Source of the DNA: Solirubrobacterales bacterium
GTDB lineage: Bacteria; Actinomycetota; Thermoleophilia; Solirubrobacterales; 70-9
Length of the DNA: 64,000 nt
Direction of reading: 5' to 3'
Assembly: GCA_035573435.1 (NCBI GenBank)
Contig: DATMZR010000028.1
Span: forward strand, 1 to 64,000
The translations under genes were made by a program, and so were the position numbers. A model generated the notes under the pieces. It saw only the letters and a list, made by a program, of their open reading frames with translations. It was not told where the DNA came from and did no database searches. Below are positions 10,179 to 22,375 of the stretch, one piece after another. Each line of letters starts with the position of its first letter. Within the stretch, counting starts at the first letter, position 1.

Positions 10179-11726
10179 ATGCTCGTCGCTGCCATCCTCT
10201 CGCTCGCCTATCTGCTCCTGGAGCCCTCCAGCGCCGATCTCGCTGCGCAGACGTTTCGCTCCGACCTGTTCGCCTCCCACGGCTTCCTGCTCTGGAACAA
10301 CGACTGGTACGGGGGCCACTACCTGCCCGGCTACAGCGTGCTGTTCCCCCCGCTCGGGGCGGCGCTCGGGCCGCGAATGGTTGGCGCTCTCGCCGCCGTG
10401 ACGGCCGCCGGTTTGTTCAGCGCCCTCACCCGTCACCGGTACGGCGAGCGCGCACGCCTCGCAAACCTCTGGTTCGGGGCGGGTGCCGCGGCGCTCCTGT
10501 TCTCCGGTCGCCTCACATTCACACTGGGGATCGCGATCGGCCTGGGGTCGCTGCTAGCTCTGCAGAGGCGGCGTCCGCTGCTGGCGGCCGTGCTTGCCGT
10601 GCTCACCGTTTGCGGCAGCCCGGTTGCCGGCGTCTTCCTGGCACTCGCGGGCGTTGCCGTGATGCTCGCGGGGGATCGGCGCGGTGGGGCATTCGTCGCG
10701 CTCCCGGCGGGCGCGACGCTCGGCGCACTGTCGCTTGCCTTTCCCACCAACGGCCATGAGCCGTTCGTGTTCTCGGCCTTCATCGGTGTGCCCCTGCTCG
10801 CCCTGGCCGCCCTCTTCCTGCTGCCACCCTCCGAGCGTGCGCTGCGGTGGGGCGTCGCCGTGTATGCGATTGCGGCCGCCGTCGCCTTCGCGCTCGCCAA
10901 CCCGGTGGGTGGGACGATGGCTCGCCTGGGAGCTCTCGCCGGGGGGCCGGTCCTGGCCCTGGGGCTCGCCGGCCGGCGCCCCGTGGCACTTGCCGCTGTG
11001 GCCCTGCCGTTGCTCTACTGGCAATGGGTGGCCCCCGTCCGTGACGTTGCCAAGGCGGCCGGAGACGCGTCCCTGCACTCCTCGTACTACGAGCCGTTGC
11101 TCGGCGAGTTGCAGCGACGCACGCAAGGATGGCCGGCGCGGGTTGAGATCCCACCGACCGAGAACCGCTGGGAGGCCGACTACATCGCGCCGCATTTCCC
11201 GCTGGCGCGCGGCTGGCTGCGACAGCTCGAGTCGGACGACCACGACCTGTTCACCGATGGGAGCCTGAGGGCGGCCACCTATCGGGCCTGGCTTCGCGCC
11301 AACGGTGTCTCCTACGTGGCAGTCGCGGACACCGAGCTCGACTACCTGGCCAAGGACGAGGCGGCCTTGATTCGCCGCGGGCTGCCGTACCTGGACAGGG
11401 TCTGGAGCAATCGCCACTGGCGCCTGTATCGGGTGGAGCACTCCATTGGGCTGGTGTCGCGGCGTGGCCATGCGAGCCGCGGCGCGTCCGGTGCGCACCT
11501 CACCGCTCTCGGGCCGGCCAGCTTCACTCTGTTCGCCTCGCACTCGGGCACCTTCATCGTTCGCGTGCGGTACACGGGCTATTGGACGGTGACCTCCGGG
11601 CATGCGTGCGTGGAGCGCCATGGCGACTGGACGAAGATTCGGGTGCGCCGGCCGGGGGTCGTCAACGTCGCCGCCAGATTCAGCCTCGATGGCTTGGTCG
11701 GGCGCGACGCTGAATGCTCGGCATAG
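10179..11726 (+). CDS. large integral membrane protein, glycosyltransferase-C-like
   Basis: A 515-residue protein with roughly ten hydrophobic segments in its first 330 residues and a soluble C-terminal part (about 340-515). The early extracytoplasmic loop WNNDWYGGHYLPGYSVLFPP resembles membrane proteins annotated as 6-pyruvoyl-tetrahydropterin-synthase-related or GT-C transferases, but no DxD-type acidic pair is clear in loop 1. I chose ATG 10179 because it begins the first membrane helix (MLVAAILSLAYLLL). It overlaps the next gene by 13 bases. Involvement in envelope glycan or lipid assembly is only inferred. Confidence 0.65.
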   Translation: MLVAAILSLAYLLLEPSSADLAAQTFRSDLFASHGFLLWNNDWYGGHYLPGYSVLFPPLGAALGPRMVGALAAVTAAGLFSALTRHRYGERARLANLWFGAGAAALLFSGRLTFTLGIAIGLGSLLALQRRRPLLAAVLAVLTVCGSPVAGVFLALAGVAVMLAGDRRGGAFVALPAGATLGALSLAFPTNGHEPFVFSAFIGVPLLALAALFLLPPSERALRWGVAVYAIAAAVAFALANPVGGTMARLGALAGGPVLALGLAGRRPVALAAVALPLLYWQWVAPVRDVAKAAGDASLHSSYYEPLLGELQRRTQGWPARVEIPPTENRWEADYIAPHFPLARGWLRQLESDDHDLFTDGSLRAATYRAWLRANGVSYVAVADTELDYLAKDEAALIRRGLPYLDRVWSNRHWRLYRVEHSIGLVSRRGHASRGASGAHLTALGPASFTLFASHSGTFIVRVRYTGYWTVTSGHACVERHGDWTKIRVRRPGVVNVAARFSLDGLVGRDAECSA

Positions 11727-12553
11727 CGCTCGGGCTCGGGTCAAGCGTCGCCTGGGGCGTCTCCGATTTCCTCGGCGGCCTTCAAAGCCGCCGGATCTCC
11801 GTCCTCACCGTGCTGCTGGTCAGTCAGCCGGTGGGGCTCGCCCTCGCCCTGGTGGTCGCGGTGGCAGTGGGCGGCGACCCTTTGGGGACGGGCGATGCCG
11901 CGATCGCGATCGCGGCAGGCGCCGCCGTGGTGATCGCGTTGGGGGCTTTCTATCGGGCGATGGCGCTCGGCTCGGTCAGCGTGGTCGCGACGATCGGCGC
12001 ACTGGGGGTGATGGTGCCGATCGTCGCCGGCCTCGTTCAGGGCGAGGAGCCGGCCACGATCCAGGCGGTCGGCGTGGTGGCGGCCGTGGTCGGAGTCGTC
12101 CTGGTGGCGCGCGAGCCCGATCCCGAGTGGCGTGCCGCCGGCCGCACTGCTGTCGGCCTGGCCGCCCTTGCGGCGCTGGGCTTCGGGACGTTCTTCCTGG
12201 CCCTCGACGAGACTTCCGGCCCAGAGCCCACCTGGACCATCGTCGCGGTGCGCTGCGGGGGGGTTGGGACCCTGCTGGTCGTCGCCGCCTTCCTGCGGCC
12301 GTCGATGCGGATCGATAGCGCGCTGCTCCCCGCCCTGCTCACGATTGGTTGCTTGGACGTGCTCGCGAACTCGCTGTTCGCGGTTGCCACCAACCACGGC
12401 CTCCTGTCGCTTGTCGCGGTTGCGGGCTCGCTCTATTCGGCGGTCACCGTTCTGCTAGCCCGGTTCGTGCTCGGAGAGCGGCTGGCGCCCATCCAGCGGA
12501 GCGGGGTGATCGCGGCCTTGGTCGGGGTCGCCTTGATCGCCGCGGGCTCTTAG
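11714..12553 (+). CDS. EamA/DMT-superfamily transporter
   Basis: Ten predicted transmembrane helices arranged as two EamA repeats (about 1-135 and 145-279). The N-terminal LGSSVAWGVSDFLGGL and the C-terminal GERLAPIQRSGVIAALVGVALI are typical of drug/metabolite exporters. It starts inside the end of the preceding membrane-protein gene, so the two are coupled. Its last four bases overlap the end of the convergent HAD gene. The substrate is unknown. Confidence 0.88.
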   Translation: MLGIALGLGSSVAWGVSDFLGGLQSRRISVLTVLLVSQPVGLALALVVAVAVGGDPLGTGDAAIAIAAGAAVVIALGAFYRAMALGSVSVVATIGALGVMVPIVAGLVQGEEPATIQAVGVVAAVVGVVLVAREPDPEWRAAGRTAVGLAALAALGFGTFFLALDETSGPEPTWTIVAVRCGGVGTLLVVAAFLRPSMRIDSALLPALLTIGCLDVLANSLFAVATNHGLLSLVAVAGSLYSAVTVLLARFVLGERLAPIQRSGVIAALVGVALIAAGS

Positions 12554-13197
12554 TGCTCGGCGGGGGCCGTGAAGCCCAGGAGCTCCTCCATCCGTGCGAC
12601 GGTGTCGGCCACCTCGCGGTGGAGGATCGCGGTCATGCCGACGGCTTCGGCCCCGGAGCAGTTCTCCCGCAGGTCGTCGACGAACACGCATCGCTCAGGC
12701 TCGACGGCGAGGCGCTTCGACGCCAGCCGGTAGATCTCGGGCTGGGGCTTGTGCAGTCCCACCTCCGCCGAGATCACCACCGCGTCGAACAGCTCCGCCA
12801 GCAGGGCACGGTCGTAATGCGAGGTGCTCCAGGAGTTCGACACCAGCCCCGTCCGGACGCCGCCGGCCCGCGCCGCGCCCACCGCGGCGACCATCGGCTC
12901 GCAAGGCTTCATGCCGCGGAACATGCTGTCGATCAGGTCCGCGGCATCCCCCAGGCCGAGACGTTCCGCAAAGCGCCGCTCGAACTCCGGCTCCTCCATC
13001 CGCCCGGTCTCCAGCTCCCTCAGATCGGCCAGGGCGGCGGGGTCTTCGCGGAACAGCCGCCGCATCGAGTCCTCCGGGAGGCCCTTTTCCCGGCAGAAGT
13101 CCGCGAAGCTGTTCCACACCGAGGTGGTGAGAACGCCGCCGAAGTCCACCAGCAGGCCAGTGTGATGCCGCTCCGCCCGCATAGGATTGGCGCCCAT
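12550..13197 (-). CDS. HAD-family phosphatase, ACAD10 N-terminal-domain type
   Basis: Haloacid-dehalogenase hydrolase of 215 residues. Motif I is VDFGGVLTTS, with the nucleophile Asp but GG where phosphatases have an acid/base Asp; the motif II region is TGLVSNSWS, motif III Lys is in GLHKPQPEIY, and motif IV is VFVDDLREN. The final ELLGF matches the HAD domain of animal ACAD10. It is divergent from an APH-like kinase and both are beside an ACAD10/11-type dehydrogenase, so I infer a shared pathway. ATG 13197 is used because a TAGCCT hexamer lies eight bases upstream; an in-frame ATG at 13182 is possible. Confidence 0.85.
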   Translation of the reverse strand: MGANPMRAERHHTGLLVDFGGVLTTSVWNSFADFCREKGLPEDSMRRLFREDPAALADLRELETGRMEEPEFERRFAERLGLGDAADLIDSMFRGMKPCEPMVAAVGAARAGGVRTGLVSNSWSTSHYDRALLAELFDAVVISAEVGLHKPQPEIYRLASKRLAVEPERCVFVDDLRENCSGAEAVGMTAILHREVADTVARMEELLGFTAPAEH

Positions 13198-13211
13198 GGC
13201 GGACGAGGCTA
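13182..13211. promoter_or_regulatory. overlapping divergent leaderless promoters around CCATGG
   Basis: On the plus strand TAGGAT (13182-13187) lies eight bases before ATG 13196. On the minus strand TAGCCT (13211-13206) lies eight bases before ATG 13197. The two start codons share the palindrome CCATGG, so the arrangement is symmetric about it. Neither start has a Shine-Dalgarno sequence and no convincing -35 is seen. Confidence 0.5.
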
Positions 13212-14233
13212 TCGACCAGCCGAATCTCGAAGCCTGGTTCGAGGCGCATGTCCCCACGGCCACTCCGCCGCTGGCCTTCGAGCGCATCTCCGGCGGCCAC
13301 TCGAACCTCACGTACTCGGTCGCCGACGCCGCTGACGGGCGCTGGGCGCTGCGGCGCCCGCCGCTGGGCAGACGCCTCGCCTCCGCTCACGACATGGCCC
13401 GCGAGCACAGGATCATCTCCGCTCTCCAGCAGACGGAGGTGCCGGTGCCGCCGATCGTCGGCCTCTGCGAGGACGAAACCGTGAACGGCGCGCCGTTCTA
13501 CGTCATGGACTTCGTCGAGGGCCCGATCCTGCGCTCTCGCACCGAAGCCGAGCGCAGCTTCGACGAGGCCCAGCGAGGCCCGATCGGGGAGCGAGTCGTG
13601 GACACCCTGGTCTCGATTCACTCGATTGACCCCGACCGGGTCGGGCTTGGGGAGCTGGGTAAGAAGCAGGACTACGTCGCCCGCCAGCTTCATCGCTGGC
13701 AGGGGCAGTGGGAGAAGTCGAAGACGCGGGAGCTCGAGCTGATCGACGACGTCCACAGGCGCCTCTCCGAGCGCATTCCCGAACAGGGACCGGCGACCAT
13801 CGTGCACGGCGACTACAGGCTCGACAACATGATCCTGACGGACTCCGGCGAGGTGGCGGCCGTGGTCGACTGGGAGCTCTGCACGCTCGGCGACCCGCTC
13901 GCGGACGTCGGCATGCTGATCGTCTATTGGTCTGAGGAGGGCGACGAGCTGATGCCGCTGCTCGAGGCCCCGACCACCGCCGCCGGCTTCCCCGCACGCG
14001 AGCAGGTCTGCGAGCGTTACGCCGAGCGCTCCGGGCGCGACCTCTCGGAGATCGACTTCTACGTCGCGCTCGGCTGGTGGAAGCTGGGGATCATCCTCGA
14101 GGGGGTCTACTCGCGCTACGCGGCCGGCCAGTACGGCAAGCCCGAGGAGGGAATCGAGGGCATGGAGCGCTTCGCCGCCATCGTCGAGAACCTCGCACAG
14201 GCGGCCGACGAGGCGGAGCGCCGCCTCGGCTAG
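13196..14233 (+). CDS. APH-family kinase, ACAD10/11-type (probable 4-hydroxyacyl-CoA kinase)
   Basis: Protein-kinase-like phosphotransferase of 345 residues. Visible motifs are ISGGHSNLTYSV (glycine-rich loop), the catalytic loop HGDYRLDNMIL (Asp acting as base, Asn binding magnesium) and VDWELCTLGDPLADVG with the metal-binding Asp. The DWEL.TLGDPLADV wording is specific to the ACAD10/11 kinase domain and to LvaA-like proteins, which phosphorylate the 4-hydroxyl of 4-hydroxyacyl-CoA. It converges on the acyl-CoA dehydrogenase with only five bases between stops. Substrate assignment is inference from family and neighbours. Confidence 0.88.
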   Translation: MADEAIDQPNLEAWFEAHVPTATPPLAFERISGGHSNLTYSVADAADGRWALRRPPLGRRLASAHDMAREHRIISALQQTEVPVPPIVGLCEDETVNGAPFYVMDFVEGPILRSRTEAERSFDEAQRGPIGERVVDTLVSIHSIDPDRVGLGELGKKQDYVARQLHRWQGQWEKSKTRELELIDDVHRRLSERIPEQGPATIVHGDYRLDNMILTDSGEVAAVVDWELCTLGDPLADVGMLIVYWSEEGDELMPLLEAPTTAAGFPAREQVCERYAERSGRDLSEIDFYVALGWWKLGIILEGVYSRYAAGQYGKPEEGIEGMERFAAIVENLAQAADEAERRLG

Positions 14234-14238
14234 AAGCC

Positions 14239-15513
14239 CTAGGCCTTGGCCGTCTCCTTCGGCGCGGCCTCCGGGCGGGTGGCGCCGTCATCGGTGGCGG
14301 CCTCCGCTTCCTTGGCCCACCGGTGCAGCTCGCGGCGGGCGATGACCATCTTGTGGACCTCGTCGGGGCCATCGGCAACCCGCAGCATGCGGCTGAAGCG
14401 CCACATCCAGGCCAGGGGGGTGTCGTCGGACATGCCGAGCGCGCCGTGCACCTGGATCGCGCGGTCGAGCACGTCCATGACCACGTTTGCGGCCACGACC
14501 TTGATCATCGAGATCGCCTGCCGGGCCGCCCGCTTGCCCTGGGTGTCCATCTGCCAGGCGGCGCTCAGGGTCAAGAGGCGCGCCTGGTCCACCTCCATGC
14601 GAGACCGGGCCACGAAGTCCTGAACGAACTGCTTCTCCGCGAGCTTGCCGCCGAACGTCTCGCGCTCGTTGGCGCGGCGGCACATCAGCTCGATCGCACG
14701 CTCCGCGGTCCCGATCGCGCGCATGCAGTGGTGGATGCGGCCGGGGCCCAGCCGATCCTGGGCGATCACAAAGCCGGCGCCCCGCTCGCCGAGCAGGTTC
14801 GAGGCCGGCACGCGGCACGCGTCATAGCGGATCTCGCAGTGGCCTGGTCCGCCCGAATGGCCCATCACAGAGACCGGCCGGACCAGGTCGAAGCCTGGGT
14901 TGTCGGTGGGGACGAGGATCATGCTCGCCCGGGCGTAGGGATGCGCGTCGGGATCGGTGACGCACATGACGATTGCCACCGCGGCGCCCACCGCTCCCGA
15001 GGTGAACCACTTGTGGCCGTCGATCACCCACTCGTCGCCGTCGAGCTCGGCGCGGGTCCTCAGCGTGGTGGGATCGGAGCCTGAGACCTCGGGCTCGGTC
15101 ATGGAGAAGCAGCTGCGGATCTCGCCGTCCAGCAGCGGCGCCAGCCATTCCTGTCGCTGCTGCTCCGTGCCGTGCTCGGCGAGGATCTCCATGTTGCCGG
15201 TGTCGGGCGCCGAGCAGTTGAAGGCCATCGGGGCCGCAGCGGGACTGCGCCCCATCTGCTCGCAGAGGATCCCGTACTCCCAGTTGGTGAGCCCGGCGCC
15301 GTAGCGCTCGTCCGGCATGAACAGGTTCCAGAGCCCCTCTCGGCGCGCCGCCGCGCGGATCTCGACCAGGATCTCCGGGTAGGGCGTGCCCGAGGCGACC
15401 TCCGCGTCGAGCGCCCGCATCACCTCGAGCTCGACCGGATAGACGTGCTCGTCCATGAACACGCGCACCCGGTCGCGAAGCTCCTCGACCCGGGGCGTGA
15501 CTTCGAAGTCCAT
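14239..15513 (-). CDS. acyl-CoA dehydrogenase, ACAD10/11 type
   Basis: FAD-dependent acyl-CoA dehydrogenase of 424 residues. The signatures FNCSAPDTGNMEILAEHG, CFSMTEPEVSGSDPTT, KWFTSGA, QDRLGPGRIHHCMRAIG and LRVADGPDEVHKMVI closely follow human ACAD11 and ACAD10, which process 4-phosphorylated acyl-CoA during catabolism of 4-hydroxy acids. Together with the neighbouring kinase and HAD gene, all three ACAD10 domains are present as separate genes. Start ATG 15513 gives MDFEVTPRVEELRD. A hydrophilic C-terminal tail of about 25 residues follows the core. Confidence 0.93.
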   Translation of the reverse strand: MDFEVTPRVEELRDRVRVFMDEHVYPVELEVMRALDAEVASGTPYPEILVEIRAAARREGLWNLFMPDERYGAGLTNWEYGILCEQMGRSPAAAPMAFNCSAPDTGNMEILAEHGTEQQRQEWLAPLLDGEIRSCFSMTEPEVSGSDPTTLRTRAELDGDEWVIDGHKWFTSGAVGAAVAIVMCVTDPDAHPYARASMILVPTDNPGFDLVRPVSVMGHSGGPGHCEIRYDACRVPASNLLGERGAGFVIAQDRLGPGRIHHCMRAIGTAERAIELMCRRANERETFGGKLAEKQFVQDFVARSRMEVDQARLLTLSAAWQMDTQGKRAARQAISMIKVVAANVVMDVLDRAIQVHGALGMSDDTPLAWMWRFSRMLRVADGPDEVHKMVIARRELHRWAKEAEAATDDGATRPEAAPKETAKA

Positions 15514-18001: not shown

Positions 18002-18547
18002 CTACGTGCCGCGAGGGATGAGCTCCCGCTCCTCGAGGTAGTCGAGGATCTGCCGGGCGGATTCCTCGGGCGTCTGGCTCTCGGTGTCGATCACCAGCTC
18101 CGGGTTCTCGGGCGCCTCGTAGGGATCGGAGACCCCGGTGAACTCCTTGATCTCGCCGGCGCGGGCCTTTGCGTAGAGCCCCTTGACGTCGCGCCTCTCG
18201 CATTCCTCCACTGACGCCTTGACGTACGCCTCGATGAAGTAGCCGTCCATCTTCGCGCGCGCCTCGTCGCGAATCTCGCGGTAGGGCGAGATCGCCGCCG
18301 TGATCACGGGCACGCCGTTGCGCGCCAGAAGCGAGGCGACGAAGGCGACTCGGCGGATGTTGGTGTCGCGGTCCTCCTTCGAGAACCCGAGCCCCTTGGA
18401 GAGGTTTTGGCGCACGATGTCACCGTCCAGGACCTCGAGCTTCGAGTCGCGCCGGCGAAGCTCCTTGACCAAAACGTTCGTGATGGTGGTCTTCCCGGAC
18501 CCGGAGAGGCCGGTGAACCAGAGGCAGAATCCCTGCTCACCCGCCAT
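18002..18547 (-). CDS. cysC: adenylylsulfate kinase
   Basis: Phosphorylates adenylylsulfate (APS) at the 3' position to PAPS, using ATP. The P-loop GLSGSGKTT is near residue 14; [20 protein letters not shown] and [14 protein letters not shown] are APS-binding blocks, and 181 residues is the expected length. It overlaps the upstream sulfurylase gene by 11 bases and is the last gene of the operon. Because the local reductase looks like an APS-type enzyme, PAPS may be made for sulfation instead of reduction. Confidence 0.95.
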
Positions 18548-19631
18548 CTGAGGCTGCTCCCGTTGTGTAAGCGTCGATCAGGATCTCGGCCACCTCCTCG
18601 CGGGTGAACTCGTGCGGTGGGGTCTCGCCGCGAGCGAGCATCTCTCTCACCTTTGTACCGGACAGGAACAGGTGCGATTCCTGCGGGTGGGGGCAGGTCT
18701 TGTCGGAGGCCATCCCCTCGCACTGGTGGCACCAGAACGTGTGCTCGAAGAAGAGCGGCTGGATCCCGAGCTCCCCGATGTCGATGTCGTCGAAGATCCG
18801 CTGCGCGTCGTACGTGCCGTAGTAGTCGCCCACTCCCGCGTGGTCGCGACCGACGATGAAGTGGGTGCAGCCGTAGTTGCGGCGGATGATCGCGTGCAGC
18901 ACGGCCTCACGGGGGCCCGCGTAGTGCATCTTCGCGGGGTTGACGCCGAGAATCACCCGCTCCGGGTGGTAGTAGCGCTCCATCAGCACCTCATAGCAGC
19001 GCATTCGCACGTCCGCCGGGATGTCGCCTGGCTTCGTCTCGCCGATCAACGGATGCAGGAACAGCCCGTCGGAGACCTCCAGCGCGGCCTTGGTCAGGTA
19101 CTCATGGGCGCGGTGGATCGGGTTGCGGGTCTGGAAGGCGACGATGCGCCTCCATCCCCGGTCGGCGAACGCCTGCTTGGACTCCGCGGGGGTCAGGTAG
19201 CGGCGGTTGAAGGCCTCCTCGTGGTCGGGCAGCGCGTCTGCCTCGATCGGGCCCGCCAGGCAGCGAGAGCCCTCCCGGCGAATGGCGGCCACCCCCGGAT
19301 GCTCGTCGTCGGTGGTCAGGTAGACGAGCTCCGCCTCCTTGTCCACTTCGCGGTCGAAGACCTCTTCGACCGTCAGGCGTCCGAGCGCCTTGCCGTTCGG
19401 AGCGCTGAGCTCGATCGAGTCGCCGACCGATGCCTCGAGGTCGGTGGCCAGCGTGATCGGGATCGACCAGAGCTCACCACTTGCGAGGCGCATCTGCTCG
19501 CACACGGAACCCCAATCCTCGGAGCCCATGAACCCGCGAAGCGGCGCGAAGCCCCCGTTTGCGAGCAACTCGAAGTCAGAGGCCTGGCGGGGGCTCAGCC
19601 GCAGCGCCAGGCCGGTCTCCGCGTTACCCAT
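18537..19631 (-). CDS. sat: sulfate adenylyltransferase (ATP sulfurylase), Sat type
   Basis: Forms APS and pyrophosphate from ATP and sulfate. Active-site motifs are [10 protein letters not shown] (167-176) and [10 protein letters not shown] (261-270). A probable zinc site is [15 protein letters not shown] (Cys301, Cys304, Cys313 and a nearby His), as in sulfurylases from thermophiles and chemolithotrophs. It is the single-chain Sat type, not the CysDN heterodimer. It overlaps cysH by eight bases at its start and cysC by 11 at its end. Normal length at 364 residues. Confidence 0.95.
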
Positions 19632-20427
19632 TCAGACCGCACTCCGAGCGAGCTGTGCCGGCCCAGCGGCCCGAGCGTGGATCGCCGCTTTCGTCCGGCA
19701 CCGACGTGCACGGCATGCAGCCGATGGAGGGATACCCCTCGTCGTGTAGCGGGTTGTAGGGCACTTGGTTTTCCTTGATGTAGGCCCAGACCTCTTGATC
19801 GGTCCAGTCCACCACGGGGTTCAGCTTCCAGCGGTCGAACCGCTCATCCCAACCGAAGCGGACCGCCCCGGCACGGGTCTCCGAGTCCACTCTGCGAACC
19901 CCCGAGACCCAGCAGTCGAGCCCTTCGAGAGCCCGGTGCATCGTCTCGACCTTCCGGGACGCGCAGCACTCGTCGGAATCGCGCCACAGGTTAGCCTCCC
20001 ACCGCTCGCGAAGCCCGGGCGGGTTGGCCTGAACGAACCGCTCGAACTCGATCCCGTAGCGCGCCGCAAGCGCGTCGCGGGTGGCATACGTCTCGTCGAA
20101 GAGCAGCTCGGTGTCCAGGTAGAGGAAGCGAGCGTGCGGATCGATCCCGTGGGCGAGGTCGATGATCACGGAGCTCGTCTTCTGGAACGAGACCGCGAAG
20201 CCGAGCTTCGGACCAAAGGTCTCGATGGCCCAGGCAACCGACTCCCTGGCGCTCATCTCCTCGAGCTCGGCCGCGAGGCGCGCGGGGTCTACGAGCGTCC
20301 CGTTGATGGTCGGGAGTCGCTCGGCTCGGCCGTGTCCGTTCGCGCCGTTGCCCGAGGAGGCGTCGAAGTCCTCGTGCAGCGGCCGGGGCCGCGCCTCGAC
20401 CAGCTCGAGCTGTCTGGGGGCGGCCAT
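19624..20427 (-). CDS. cysH: assimilatory adenylylsulfate (APS) reductase
   Basis: Reduces APS (or PAPS) to sulfite with thioredoxin. The 267-residue protein has both Cys pairs of the 4Fe-4S type, DECCASRK (Cys154-Cys155) and GCMPC (Cys237, Cys240), which separate APS reductases from cluster-free PAPS reductases, plus the catalytic Cys263 in SECGLNG. The usual ending is ECGLH; here Asn replaces His. The ATG at 20427 overlaps the sir stop as ATGA. A Gly/Asn-rich linker of about 20 residues precedes the domain. Confidence 0.93.
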   Translation of the reverse strand: MAAPRQLELVEARPRPLHEDFDASSGNGANGHGRAERLPTINGTLVDPARLAAELEEMSARESVAWAIETFGPKLGFAVSFQKTSSVIIDLAHGIDPHARFLYLDTELLFDETYATRDALAARYGIEFERFVQANPPGLRERWEANLWRDSDECCASRKVETMHRALEGLDCWVSGVRRVDSETRAGAVRFGWDERFDRWKLNPVVDWTDQEVWAYIKENQVPYNPLHDEGYPSIGCMPCTSVPDESGDPRSGRWAGTARSECGLNG

Positions 20428-22322
20428 CAGACTGCGCACTCTCCCTCGCCGCGCTCGACCTTGTAGGGGTCCGAGCGGCTCCAGTCGATGAACTGGTCGA
20501 GCGTCTCGAGCCCGAACTCCACCGGCATCGCCAGGTCCTTGACCTGCGCCTCGAACGGGTCGGTCCCGATCCTCTCGACGAGGTCGTTGAACTCCTCGCC
20601 GTCACGGCGCTCGGACTCGTAGAAGCGCACCCAGCGCTCCACCGCGTCGGGGACGCGCTTGGCAGGCAGCCGCGCCTTGAGCCGGTGGCCGTACACGACC
20701 TCGCCGCCCTCGTAGTTGCCCGCGAGGTGGGCGATGTAGGCGGGGATCTGGCGCTCTCCGATCTTCAGCGAGGCGCCGGTGAAGCCGATGTTGGCGATGT
20801 GGTGCTGGGCGCAGCCGTTCGGGCAGCCGGACATCTTGATGTGGATGCGCTTGGTCAGCGGGTCGGTGATCTGCATCGTCTCGAGCCGCTCCTGGACCGC
20901 CTGGTTGAGGCCCATCGAGCTGGTGATCCCGAGCTTGCAGCTGTCGGTGCCGGGGCAGCTCACCACGTCGGTGATCTCGCGGGGGCCGCTCCCGTCGAGG
21001 CCCAGTTCGCCGAGTTGCTCCCAGACGTCGTAGACCGACTCGTCGCGCACCCAGCGCAGAACCAGGTTCTGCTGCACAGTGGTACGGGCGTAGCCGCCGC
21101 TGAACTCGCGCGTGATCGCGGCCAGGCCACGAAGCTGCTCGGGGGTGAGATCGCCACGAGTCACCTTCACCTCGACTGAGCTGAATCCCTTCTGGCGCTG
21201 CCGCTTGACGTTCGCCTCGAAGAAGCGGTCGAACTCAGAGCGATCGCCGTTGGGGCTGCCGTAGGTGCCGGGCGGCGGCGGCGCCTTCGCCTCCTCGTCG
21301 TCGATGAGCTTGAGGCGCTCGACGTCGAAGTCGCGCTCTTCCACCCAGTCACCCTGGAGCTCCTCCTCGACCATCTCGCGGAAGGCGTCGATGCCGATCT
21401 TGTCGATCAGCACCTTGATCCGGGCGCGGGCACGGTTCTCCCGCAGCCACTCCTGCCGGTCGAAGATGCGCCAGCAGGCCTCGGCGACCTTCAGGTAGTC
21501 GCCGTTCTCGAGCTCGACGAACTCGTACAGGGTGGGGGCGATCCGGGGCATGATCGAGGTGCCACCGCCGACCCGGATCTCCACCCCGCGGACGCCGTCA
21601 CGGAGGCGGGGGATGAAGCCGATGTCGTGGATCCCGGTGATCGCGACGTCCTCGTCCGTCGCCGTGAAAGCCGTCTTCACCTTGCGGGGCATCAACTGGG
21701 TGACGGGGTGGCGGACGAAGTAGCGGACGTAGGCCATCGCGTACGGGGTGATGTCGAACAGCTCTCCCTCGGTGATCCCGGCCCAGGGGTCGCCGGTGAC
21801 GTTGCGGATCGTGTTGCCGCAGCCCTCGCGCGAGGAGAGCCCGGCGTCGGAGATCTCGCGGATGAACTTCGCCGCGTCGGGAAGCGGTATGTGGTGGATC
21901 TGAATGTTCTCGCGCGTCGTGATGTGGCCCTTTCGCAGCGGTGCGTACTTCTCGATCGCGCTCGCGAAGGCCTCCATCTGCTCCGGGTTGATGCCGCCCA
22001 GCGGCAGCTTGACGCGGATCATCTGCACGTCGGGTTGGCGCTGGCCGTAGACGCCCTGCTTGAGGCGAAAGCCGATGAACTTGTCCTCCGGCAGCTCGTC
22101 GCGCATGAACCGTCCGGCCTCGGTGTCGAAGTCGTCGAACTCCCGCTCGATGACCGGGATCACGTGGCCGGGGACGTTCTCGTACACCTCCGGGTTCTCG
22201 AGCGACCCGATGCGGCCCTTGCCGGCCTGGTCCTTGTGGCTGACCTTCAGGTCGTGCTCTTCGTAAACGCGCTCGGCTGCGGTTTCGGGCGCCGACGCCT
22301 GTTCCACGGCTGTGGGCTCCAT
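20427..22322 (-). CDS. sir: ferredoxin-type sulfite/nitrite reductase
   Basis: Six-electron reduction of sulfite to sulfide, with siroheme coupled to a 4Fe-4S cluster. Cluster ligands are in SCPGTDSCKLG and SGCPNGCAQHH near the C-terminus, and the duplicated ferrodoxin-like half-domains are present (YGQRQPDVQMIRVKLPLGG; TRENIQIHHIPLPD). Being first in an operon with cysH, sat and cysC indicates sulfite, not nitrite, as substrate. ATG 22322 is chosen because TAATAT lies seven bases upstream, suggesting a leaderless mRNA; a TTG at 22340 is an alternative. Length is 631 residues. Confidence 0.93.
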   Translation of the reverse strand: MEPTAVEQASAPETAAERVYEEHDLKVSHKDQAGKGRIGSLENPEVYENVPGHVIPVIEREFDDFDTEAGRFMRDELPEDKFIGFRLKQGVYGQRQPDVQMIRVKLPLGGINPEQMEAFASAIEKYAPLRKGHITTRENIQIHHIPLPDAAKFIREISDAGLSSREGCGNTIRNVTGDPWAGITEGELFDITPYAMAYVRYFVRHPVTQLMPRKVKTAFTATDEDVAITGIHDIGFIPRLRDGVRGVEIRVGGGTSIMPRIAPTLYEFVELENGDYLKVAEACWRIFDRQEWLRENRARARIKVLIDKIGIDAFREMVEEELQGDWVEERDFDVERLKLIDDEEAKAPPPPGTYGSPNGDRSEFDRFFEANVKRQRQKGFSSVEVKVTRGDLTPEQLRGLAAITREFSGGYARTTVQQNLVLRWVRDESVYDVWEQLGELGLDGSGPREITDVVSCPGTDSCKLGITSSMGLNQAVQERLETMQITDPLTKRIHIKMSGCPNGCAQHHIANIGFTGASLKIGERQIPAYIAHLAGNYEGGEVVYGHRLKARLPAKRVPDAVERWVRFYESERRDGEEFNDLVERIGTDPFEAQVKDLAMPVEFGLETLDQFIDWSRSDPYKVERGEGECAV

Positions 22323-22329
22323 CGACGCA

Positions 22330-22335
22330 ATATTA
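22330..22335 (-). promoter_or_regulatory. -10 hexamer TAATAT of the sulfate-assimilation operon
   Basis: TAATAT lies seven bases before the sir ATG and would drive the sir-cysH-sat-cysC operon as a leaderless transcript. A CTAATTCCGGTCGGGA stretch just upstream loosely resembles CTAAGCTGGTCAGGA upstream of the TauE gene and may be a shared regulator site. Confidence 0.45.
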
Positions 22336-22375
22336 CACAAATCCCGACCGGAATTAGGCTATTTACGTCGTCACG

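What the first reader, a model, noticed from the sequence alone, without database searches (positions are those of the whole stretch)
12550..15513. All three ACAD10 domains as separate adjacent genes
A HAD phosphatase, an APH-like kinase and an acyl-CoA dehydrogenase, each closely resembling the matching ACAD10/11 domain, lie side by side (HAD divergent from the kinase by overlapping start codons, kinase convergent with the dehydrogenase by five bases). ACAD10/11 handle 4-hydroxy acids through 4-phosphoryl-CoA; LvaA/LvaC in Pseudomonas do related chemistry. This looks like an unfused bacterial version with a HAD component of unknown role, and it lies about 10 kb from carboxylase and mutase genes that could use propionyl-CoA, a product of C5 (4-hydroxyvalerate) breakdown.
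Basis: partly seen in the sequence, partly recalled or inferred. Interest (0 to 1): 0.75.

Follow-up and report, generated by a model that had tools for sequence, protein, structure and literature searches.

The report
Split ACAD10 genes with phosphatase-like partner
A soil bacterium keeps the three parts of the animal enzyme ACAD10 (which lets 4-hydroxy fatty acids be burned) as three neighbouring genes, and relatives show that the puzzling phosphatase-like part is a long-standing partner of the kinase part, so its unknown role can be tested in bacteria.

Summary
The kinase (13196-14233 +) and dehydrogenase (14239-15513 -) carry every residue tested that marks the ACAD10/11-LvaA/LvaC 4-hydroxyacyl-CoA pathway; ten other acyl-CoA dehydrogenases of this genome do not. 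The HAD gene starts at 13197, its ATG overlapping the kinase ATG in one CATG. The HAD is not a chance neighbour: 63 of its 80 nearest relatives in public genomes lie within 400 bp of such a kinase, and 12 of 12 do in the window's own family. In 57 loci the two genes are head-to-tail, with a possible HAD start within about 15 bases of the kinase stop; in the window's family they diverge from overlapping starts. The kinase in the window's family belongs to a different clade from the one beside the same HAD in sister families, so the HAD apparently stayed while its kinase was exchanged. The dehydrogenase is often elsewhere in the genome, so the conserved core is kinase plus HAD. The HAD keeps all catalytic residues except the second Asp (DxG), as reported for ACAD10; E. 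coli YihX, an active phosphatase, has the same gap, so catalysis is not excluded. The propionyl-CoA link is not supported. HAD function (phosphatase or brake on the kinase) is inferred, not shown.

The parts
12550..13197 (-). HAD-family gene (215 aa from ATG at 13197); motif I DFGGVLTT (D-x-G), SN, K, DD conserved
   Evidence: Pfam PF00702 1.5e-13; nearest NCBIfam model TIGR02247 at 104 bits, under its cut-off 125; residues invariant in relatives; AF2 pLDDT 93.6; PDB neighbours sEH phosphatase domain and YihX
13196..14233 (+). LvaA/ACAD10-11-type 4-hydroxyacyl-CoA kinase (345 aa)
   Evidence: PF01636 1.6e-52; mouse ACAD11 kinase domain 5e-39 and bacterial relatives 9o56, 3dxp; Arg-Glu of helix C, Arg163, Asp206, Asn211, Asp225 kept
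14239..15513 (-). LvaC/ACAD10-11-type phospho-eliminating acyl-CoA dehydrogenase (424 aa)
   Evidence: 4hr3 6e-113, ACAD11 3.6e-111, next family member about 3e-51; DRLGPGRIHHCMR and catalytic Asp aligned with R626, R631, H634, R637, D753 of ACAD11
13195..13198 (.). CATG palindrome in which both start codons overlap
   Evidence: conserved in most genomes of the family that have the HAD
13182..13187 (+). TAGGAT, possible -10 element (TANNNT) of a leaderless kinase transcript, 8 nt before ATG
   Evidence: TANNNT 6-9 nt upstream of the kinase ATG in most family members; consensus match only
13206..13211 (-). TAGCCT, possible -10 element of the HAD transcript, 8 nt before its ATG, inside the kinase gene
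   Evidence: same spacing in most divergent loci of the family; consensus match only
11714..12553 (+). EamA-type transporter convergent with the HAD (stop codons overlap); also beside the HAD in several sister-family loci
   Evidence: PF00892 6.4e-21; loci L038, L040, L044, L080, L081, L083, L090

Best explanation
This is an unfused ACAD10-type module. The kinase phosphorylates the 4-OH of a 4-hydroxyacyl-CoA; the dehydrogenase, using its FAD as a hydride shuttle, eliminates the phosphate and gives a 2-enoyl-CoA for beta-oxidation. The HAD protein is a dedicated third partner that works against the kinase step, keeping 4-phosphoacyl-CoA from building up. I think it most likely does so on the metabolite, as a Mg2+-dependent phosphatase of 4-phosphoacyl-CoA or its free acid (about 0.5), less likely by holding back the kinase protein directly, as reported for the ACAD10 HAD domain (about 0.3). 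Steps one and two are inferred from complete residue signatures and published biochemistry of relatives; that the HAD belongs to the module is shown by conserved linkage; what the HAD does is inference.
For: Kinase: all diagnostic residues in the window and in 112 of 112 fully covered homologues. Dehydrogenase: R626/R631/H634/R637/D753 pattern present; ten other dehydrogenases of this genome lack it; in ACAD11, substitution of R626, H634 or R637 disrupts the activity (PMC12440821). HAD linkage: 63 of 80 nearest relatives beside the kinase, 12 of 12 in the family; in 57 of 57 head-to-tail loci a HAD start is possible within -14 to +11 nt of the kinase stop. Three-gene sets in other geometries: L071/L072 (two genomes of the same order), Frankiales L151, L152, and one-strand gene clusters in Tsukamurella and Rhodococcus plasmids. 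Kinase exchanged beside the same HAD: HAD 57-62% but kinase 40-44% identical in sister families, against 58-64% and 67-74% in the more distant members of the window's family; one kinase clade matching the HAD grouping is rejected (p-AU 1.6e-5), while the dehydrogenase orthologue is 70-79% identical. ACAD10 precedent: HAD fused to this kinase, only the first Asp of DxD, mutation of it raises kinase output (PMC11342911). Catalysis possible: YihX also has D-x-G and is a glucose-1-phosphatase (PMC4251788).
Against: No substrate or activity is known for any protein here. The ACAD10 HAD showed negligible phosphatase activity (PMC11342911). The HAD is dispensable: several genera of the family keep kinase and dehydrogenase without it, and one genome (L063) holds only a remnant. 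About 15 relatives of the HAD (for example in Dactylosporangium) have no such kinase beside them. No CoA ligase or 4-oxoacyl reductase was seen beside the window genes.
Confidence: 0.68

Rival explanations
1. The HAD is a protein-level brake: a non-catalytic or barely catalytic subunit that binds the kinase (and perhaps the phospho-product) and lowers its rate, as proposed for the HAD domain of ACAD10.
For: ACAD10: Asp-to-Ala in the HAD raises kinase output without measurable phosphatase (PMC11342911); the same D-x-G motif here; overlapping or near-overlapping genes in 57 loci would favour making the two proteins together.
Against: The HAD stays beside kinases of several separate clades, easier for an enzyme acting on the shared metabolite than for a specific protein contact; all other catalytic residues are invariant or nearly so; D-x-G does not exclude catalysis.
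Confidence: 0.3
2. Kinase and dehydrogenase do the 4-hydroxyacyl-CoA chemistry but the HAD does something separate, such as removing phosphate from a different metabolite of the same catabolic route, or general housekeeping.
For: HAD phosphatases are often broad (general knowledge); some relatives sit without a kinase.
Against: Linkage to this one kinase type in three or more gene arrangements.
Confidence: 0.15
3. Chance or inherited neighbourhood: three unrelated genes kept together by slow rearrangement.
For: The wider locus is syntenic in the family.
Against: The pair persists through inversion, apparent exchange of the kinase, and in plasmid gene clusters of Mycobacteriales.
Confidence: 0.03

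Closest known systems
Mammalian ACAD10 (HAD-kinase-ACAD fusion)
   Same: Same three protein types; D-x-G HAD; kinase and ACAD residue signatures
   Different: Three separate genes, HAD and kinase divergent, dehydrogenase convergent; HAD orthology to the ACAD10 HAD not testable here
Mammalian ACAD11 (kinase-ACAD fusion)
   Same: Kinase and ACAD signatures complete; alignable over the full domains
   Different: No HAD in ACAD11; fused
Pseudomonas putida lva operon (LvaA, LvaC)
   Same: Separate kinase and dehydrogenase genes of the same two families
   Different: No HAD in the lva operon (PMC12440821); no reductase or CoA ligase gene found beside the window genes
E. coli YihX / soluble epoxide hydrolase phosphatase domain
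   Same: Fold and catalytic residues of the HAD; YihX shares D-x-G
   Different: 23% identity to YihX; substrate unknown; sEH domain is linked to an epoxide hydrolase

Membership tests
LvaC/ACAD10-11 subgroup of acyl-CoA dehydrogenases | R626, H634, R637 (HCMR helix) and catalytic Asp753 in place of Glu | tested here: met
   RRHRD at aligned positions; ten own-genome paralogues do not match
[quoted passage not shown]
   needs purified protein
LvaA/ACAD10-11 kinase | APH fold with HGDxxxxN, DWE and the CoA-contacting Arg residues | tested here: met
   the Arg beside the helix-C Glu is numbered R86 in the paper but falls at another index in the PDB sequence, so it was matched by its description
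LvaA/ACAD10-11 kinase | Phosphorylates 4-hydroxyacyl-CoA | not testable with these tools
   needs purified protein
ACAD10 HAD domain | Only the first Asp of DxD present | tested here: met
   DFGG; D-x-G in 99 of 100 fully covered relatives, some of them the same locus fetched twice; the genome scan used DFGGVLT as one of its two search patterns, so this is biased, but plasmid and whole-genome hits found without it agree
ACAD10 HAD domain | Fused to the kinase | tested here: not met
   separate genes; no fusion among 57 head-to-tail loci
ACAD10 HAD domain | Closest relative is the ACAD10 HAD | not testable with these tools
   no ACAD10 HAD sequence in the libraries searched
TIGR02247 (epoxide hydrolase N-terminal domain-like phosphatase) | Score over the curated cut-off | tested here: not met
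   104.4 against 125.4 bits, but best of all NCBIfam models
lva operon | lvaA-lvaC with lvaB, lvaD (SDR) and lvaE (CoA ligase) in one operon | tested here: not met
   Pfam scans of the larger flanking genes between 4.4 and 22.3 kb found transporter, Rrf2, PHP and sulfur-assimilation genes but no SDR or CoA ligase; no LvaB search was made

The most novel reading that the evidence does not exclude
The D-x-G HAD is a specific 4-phosphoacyl-CoA phosphatase (or brake) that forms a conserved kinase-antagonist pair across Actinomycetota, and the HAD domain of ACAD10 is the fused form of this pair.
Probability: 0.35. Interest if true: 0.66.

Novelty: new variant of a known kind. Interest (0 to 1): 0.52.

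Why it matters
The role of the HAD domain of ACAD10 is an open question: one paper found that it restrains the kinase without clear phosphatase activity, the other did not study it. Free-standing bacterial HAD, kinase and dehydrogenase let each part be added or left out, so the question becomes a simple reconstitution. The find also suggests 4-hydroxy acid catabolism in a broad group of soil actinobacteria, and shows that the HAD belongs with the kinase rather than with the dehydrogenase.

Tried and rejected
Propionyl-CoA/C5 link: the mutase is about 12 kb from the kinase here and about 14-46 kb in other genera, so it is loose synteny, not an operon. Fusion of HAD and kinase in bacteria: none among 57 head-to-tail loci. 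HAD tree against kinase tree: the kinase data reject one clade matching the HAD grouping, but the HAD data do not reject the kinase-like split (p 0.6); so an ancient pair duplication is not excluded by topology alone, and the exchange argument rests on distances and on EamA synteny. Consensus sigma-70 scan: nothing over background. My simple gene caller merged unrelated antisense ORFs into one cluster, so only tblastn-based neighbours are used. Literature: nothing found in the held library on bacterial HAD partners of these kinases; a 2008 paper says only that similar proteins exist in bacteria (PMC2223070).

Full report
Observation. The window holds a HAD-family gene (12550-13197, minus), an APH-type kinase gene (13196-14233, plus) and an acyl-CoA dehydrogenase gene (14239-15513, minus). 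The HAD start is most likely the ATG at 13197: HAD and kinase start codons then overlap in CATG (13195-13198), and the same overlap occurs in most relatives that have the divergent pair. Kinase and dehydrogenase converge with five bases between them.

Kinase and dehydrogenase. The dehydrogenase matches 4hr3 (6e-113) and ACAD11 (3.6e-111) far better than any other solved dehydrogenase (about 3e-51 and weaker). Aligned with mouse ACAD11 it has R626, R631, H634, R637 and D753, the residues that hold the substrate and phosphate and act as base in ACAD11 (PMC12440821). Ten other dehydrogenases of the same genome do not have this pattern. The kinase matches 9o56, 3dxp and the ACAD11 kinase domain and keeps the catalytic and CoA-contact residues; so do 112 of 112 fully covered homologues. 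The genome has only one kinase of this type, and thiolases, enoyl-CoA hydratases and other dehydrogenases for downstream beta-oxidation.

The HAD is a real partner. A scan of named bacterial and archaeal genomes gave 80 nearest HAD relatives, nearly all named as Actinomycetota; 63 have such a kinase within 400 bp, and a few of the rest lie at contig ends. In the window's family, 12 of 50 genomes have the orthologue (231 bits and more; the next hits score 148 and less), and all 12 have the kinase beside it. By chance a given gene would be beside a single-copy gene in about 1 genome in 1,000 (estimate: two neighbours out of roughly 2,600 genes).

Arrangements. In the window's family the two genes diverge. 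In 57 loci of other groups they are head-to-tail, always with a possible HAD start within -14 to +11 nt of the kinase stop, many as GTGA or ATGA overlaps (the nearest possible start was chosen, which flatters this number). Three-gene sets with the ACAD11-type dehydrogenase occur in other orders in L071/L072, L104, L116, L151 and L152, and on one strand in plasmids of Tsukamurella (thiolase, SDRs, HAD, fabG, maoC, kinase, dehydrogenases, phosphotriesterase-like protein, CoA ligase) and Rhodococcus koreensis; a Rhodococcus opacus plasmid has SDR, HAD, fabG, maoC and kinase in a row. In most head-to-tail loci no such dehydrogenase is seen within 6 kb. Eleven genomes with the pair were searched; the eight outside the window's family all carry one or two dehydrogenases of this type elsewhere (all RRHRD except RRHRE in L176), and in G133 of the family it lies on another contig.

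Exchange of the kinase. At equal HAD divergence (57-62% to the window in sister families, 58-64% in the more distant members of the window's family) the kinase is 40-44% in sister families but 67-74% in the family. The dehydrogenase orthologue is 70-79% in sister families. The window-type kinases form a separate supported clade together with kinases that have no HAD, and holding them with the sister-family kinases is rejected (p-AU 1.6e-5; the group was named after seeing the HAD tree). An EamA transporter lies on the far side of the HAD in both arrangements. The simplest reading is that the HAD stayed in place and its kinase was exchanged and turned round. An old duplication of the pair is not excluded by topology alone.

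Loss. Several genera of the family keep kinase and dehydrogenase without the HAD. In L063 only about the first 30 residues remain, next to an intact start region. The HAD is therefore helpful, not essential.

What the HAD may do. The relatives keep the nucleophile Asp, the Ser/Thr-Asn pair, Lys and the Asp pair of a HAD phosphatase, but have Gly at the second position of DxD. ACAD10 was reported to lack the same Asp, to have negligible phosphatase activity, and to make more phospho-product when the remaining Asp is mutated (PMC11342911). But E. coli YihX, a structural neighbour, also has D-x-G and is a glucose-1-phosphate phosphatase (PMC4251788; PMC8938923). So the missing Asp does not show that the HAD is dead. 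Invariance of the other catalytic residues and the exchange of the kinase favour action on the shared metabolite; the ACAD10 data favour a brake on the kinase. I put phosphatase at about 0.5 and brake at about 0.3.

Propionyl-CoA. A carboxyltransferase gene and a methylmalonyl-CoA mutase gene lie at 24-28 kb. In relatives the mutase is on the same contig at distances of about 14 to 46 kb, and the genome has two more mutase-like genes on other contigs. This is loose synteny. Nothing in the sequence indicates a C5 substrate.

Limits. Trees are quick trees with LG+G4; many loci come from metagenome bins; some loci were fetched twice under different names (duplicates removed for the trees, not for the residue counts). 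No ACAD10 HAD sequence was available, so direct kinship of the bacterial HAD with the ACAD10 domain is untested. I found no earlier description of the kinase-HAD pair in the held papers; most subscription journals were not searchable.

Noticed in passing
window 13182-13211: Face-to-face possible promoters: TANNNT lies 8 nt before each of two overlapping divergent start codons, each inside the other gene's start region, with no room for a leader; spacing is similar in most family members. Looks like divergent leaderless transcription.
   Followed up: partly
L154 508-10915; L164; L165: Tsukamurella and Rhodococcus plasmids carry the kinase and HAD in one-strand clusters, with fabG and maoC where annotated; in Tsukamurella also a phosphotriesterase-like protein, which might open lactones to 4-hydroxy acids.
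   Followed up: partly
L156 6565-7269: A Deinococcus plasmid has a histidine phosphatase gene shortly after the same type of kinase, a possible unrelated stand-in for the HAD.
   Followed up: no
L063 10691-10777: Broken HAD remnant beside an intact kinase and dehydrogenase.
   Followed up: partly
L045, L048, L049, L051, L176: Dehydrogenases with the phosphate-binding residues R/R/H/R but another residue (L, R, Q, E) aligned at the catalytic Asp; may be alignment error or a different reaction.
   Followed up: no
window 11714-12553: EamA transporter beside the HAD recurs in sister families, perhaps part of the same function or only synteny.
   Followed up: partly
window 18537-22340: ATP sulfurylase, PAPS reductase-type and NirA-like reductase genes form a sulfur-assimilation group, with an Rrf2 regulator and a TauE-type transporter between it and the dehydrogenase.
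   Followed up: no
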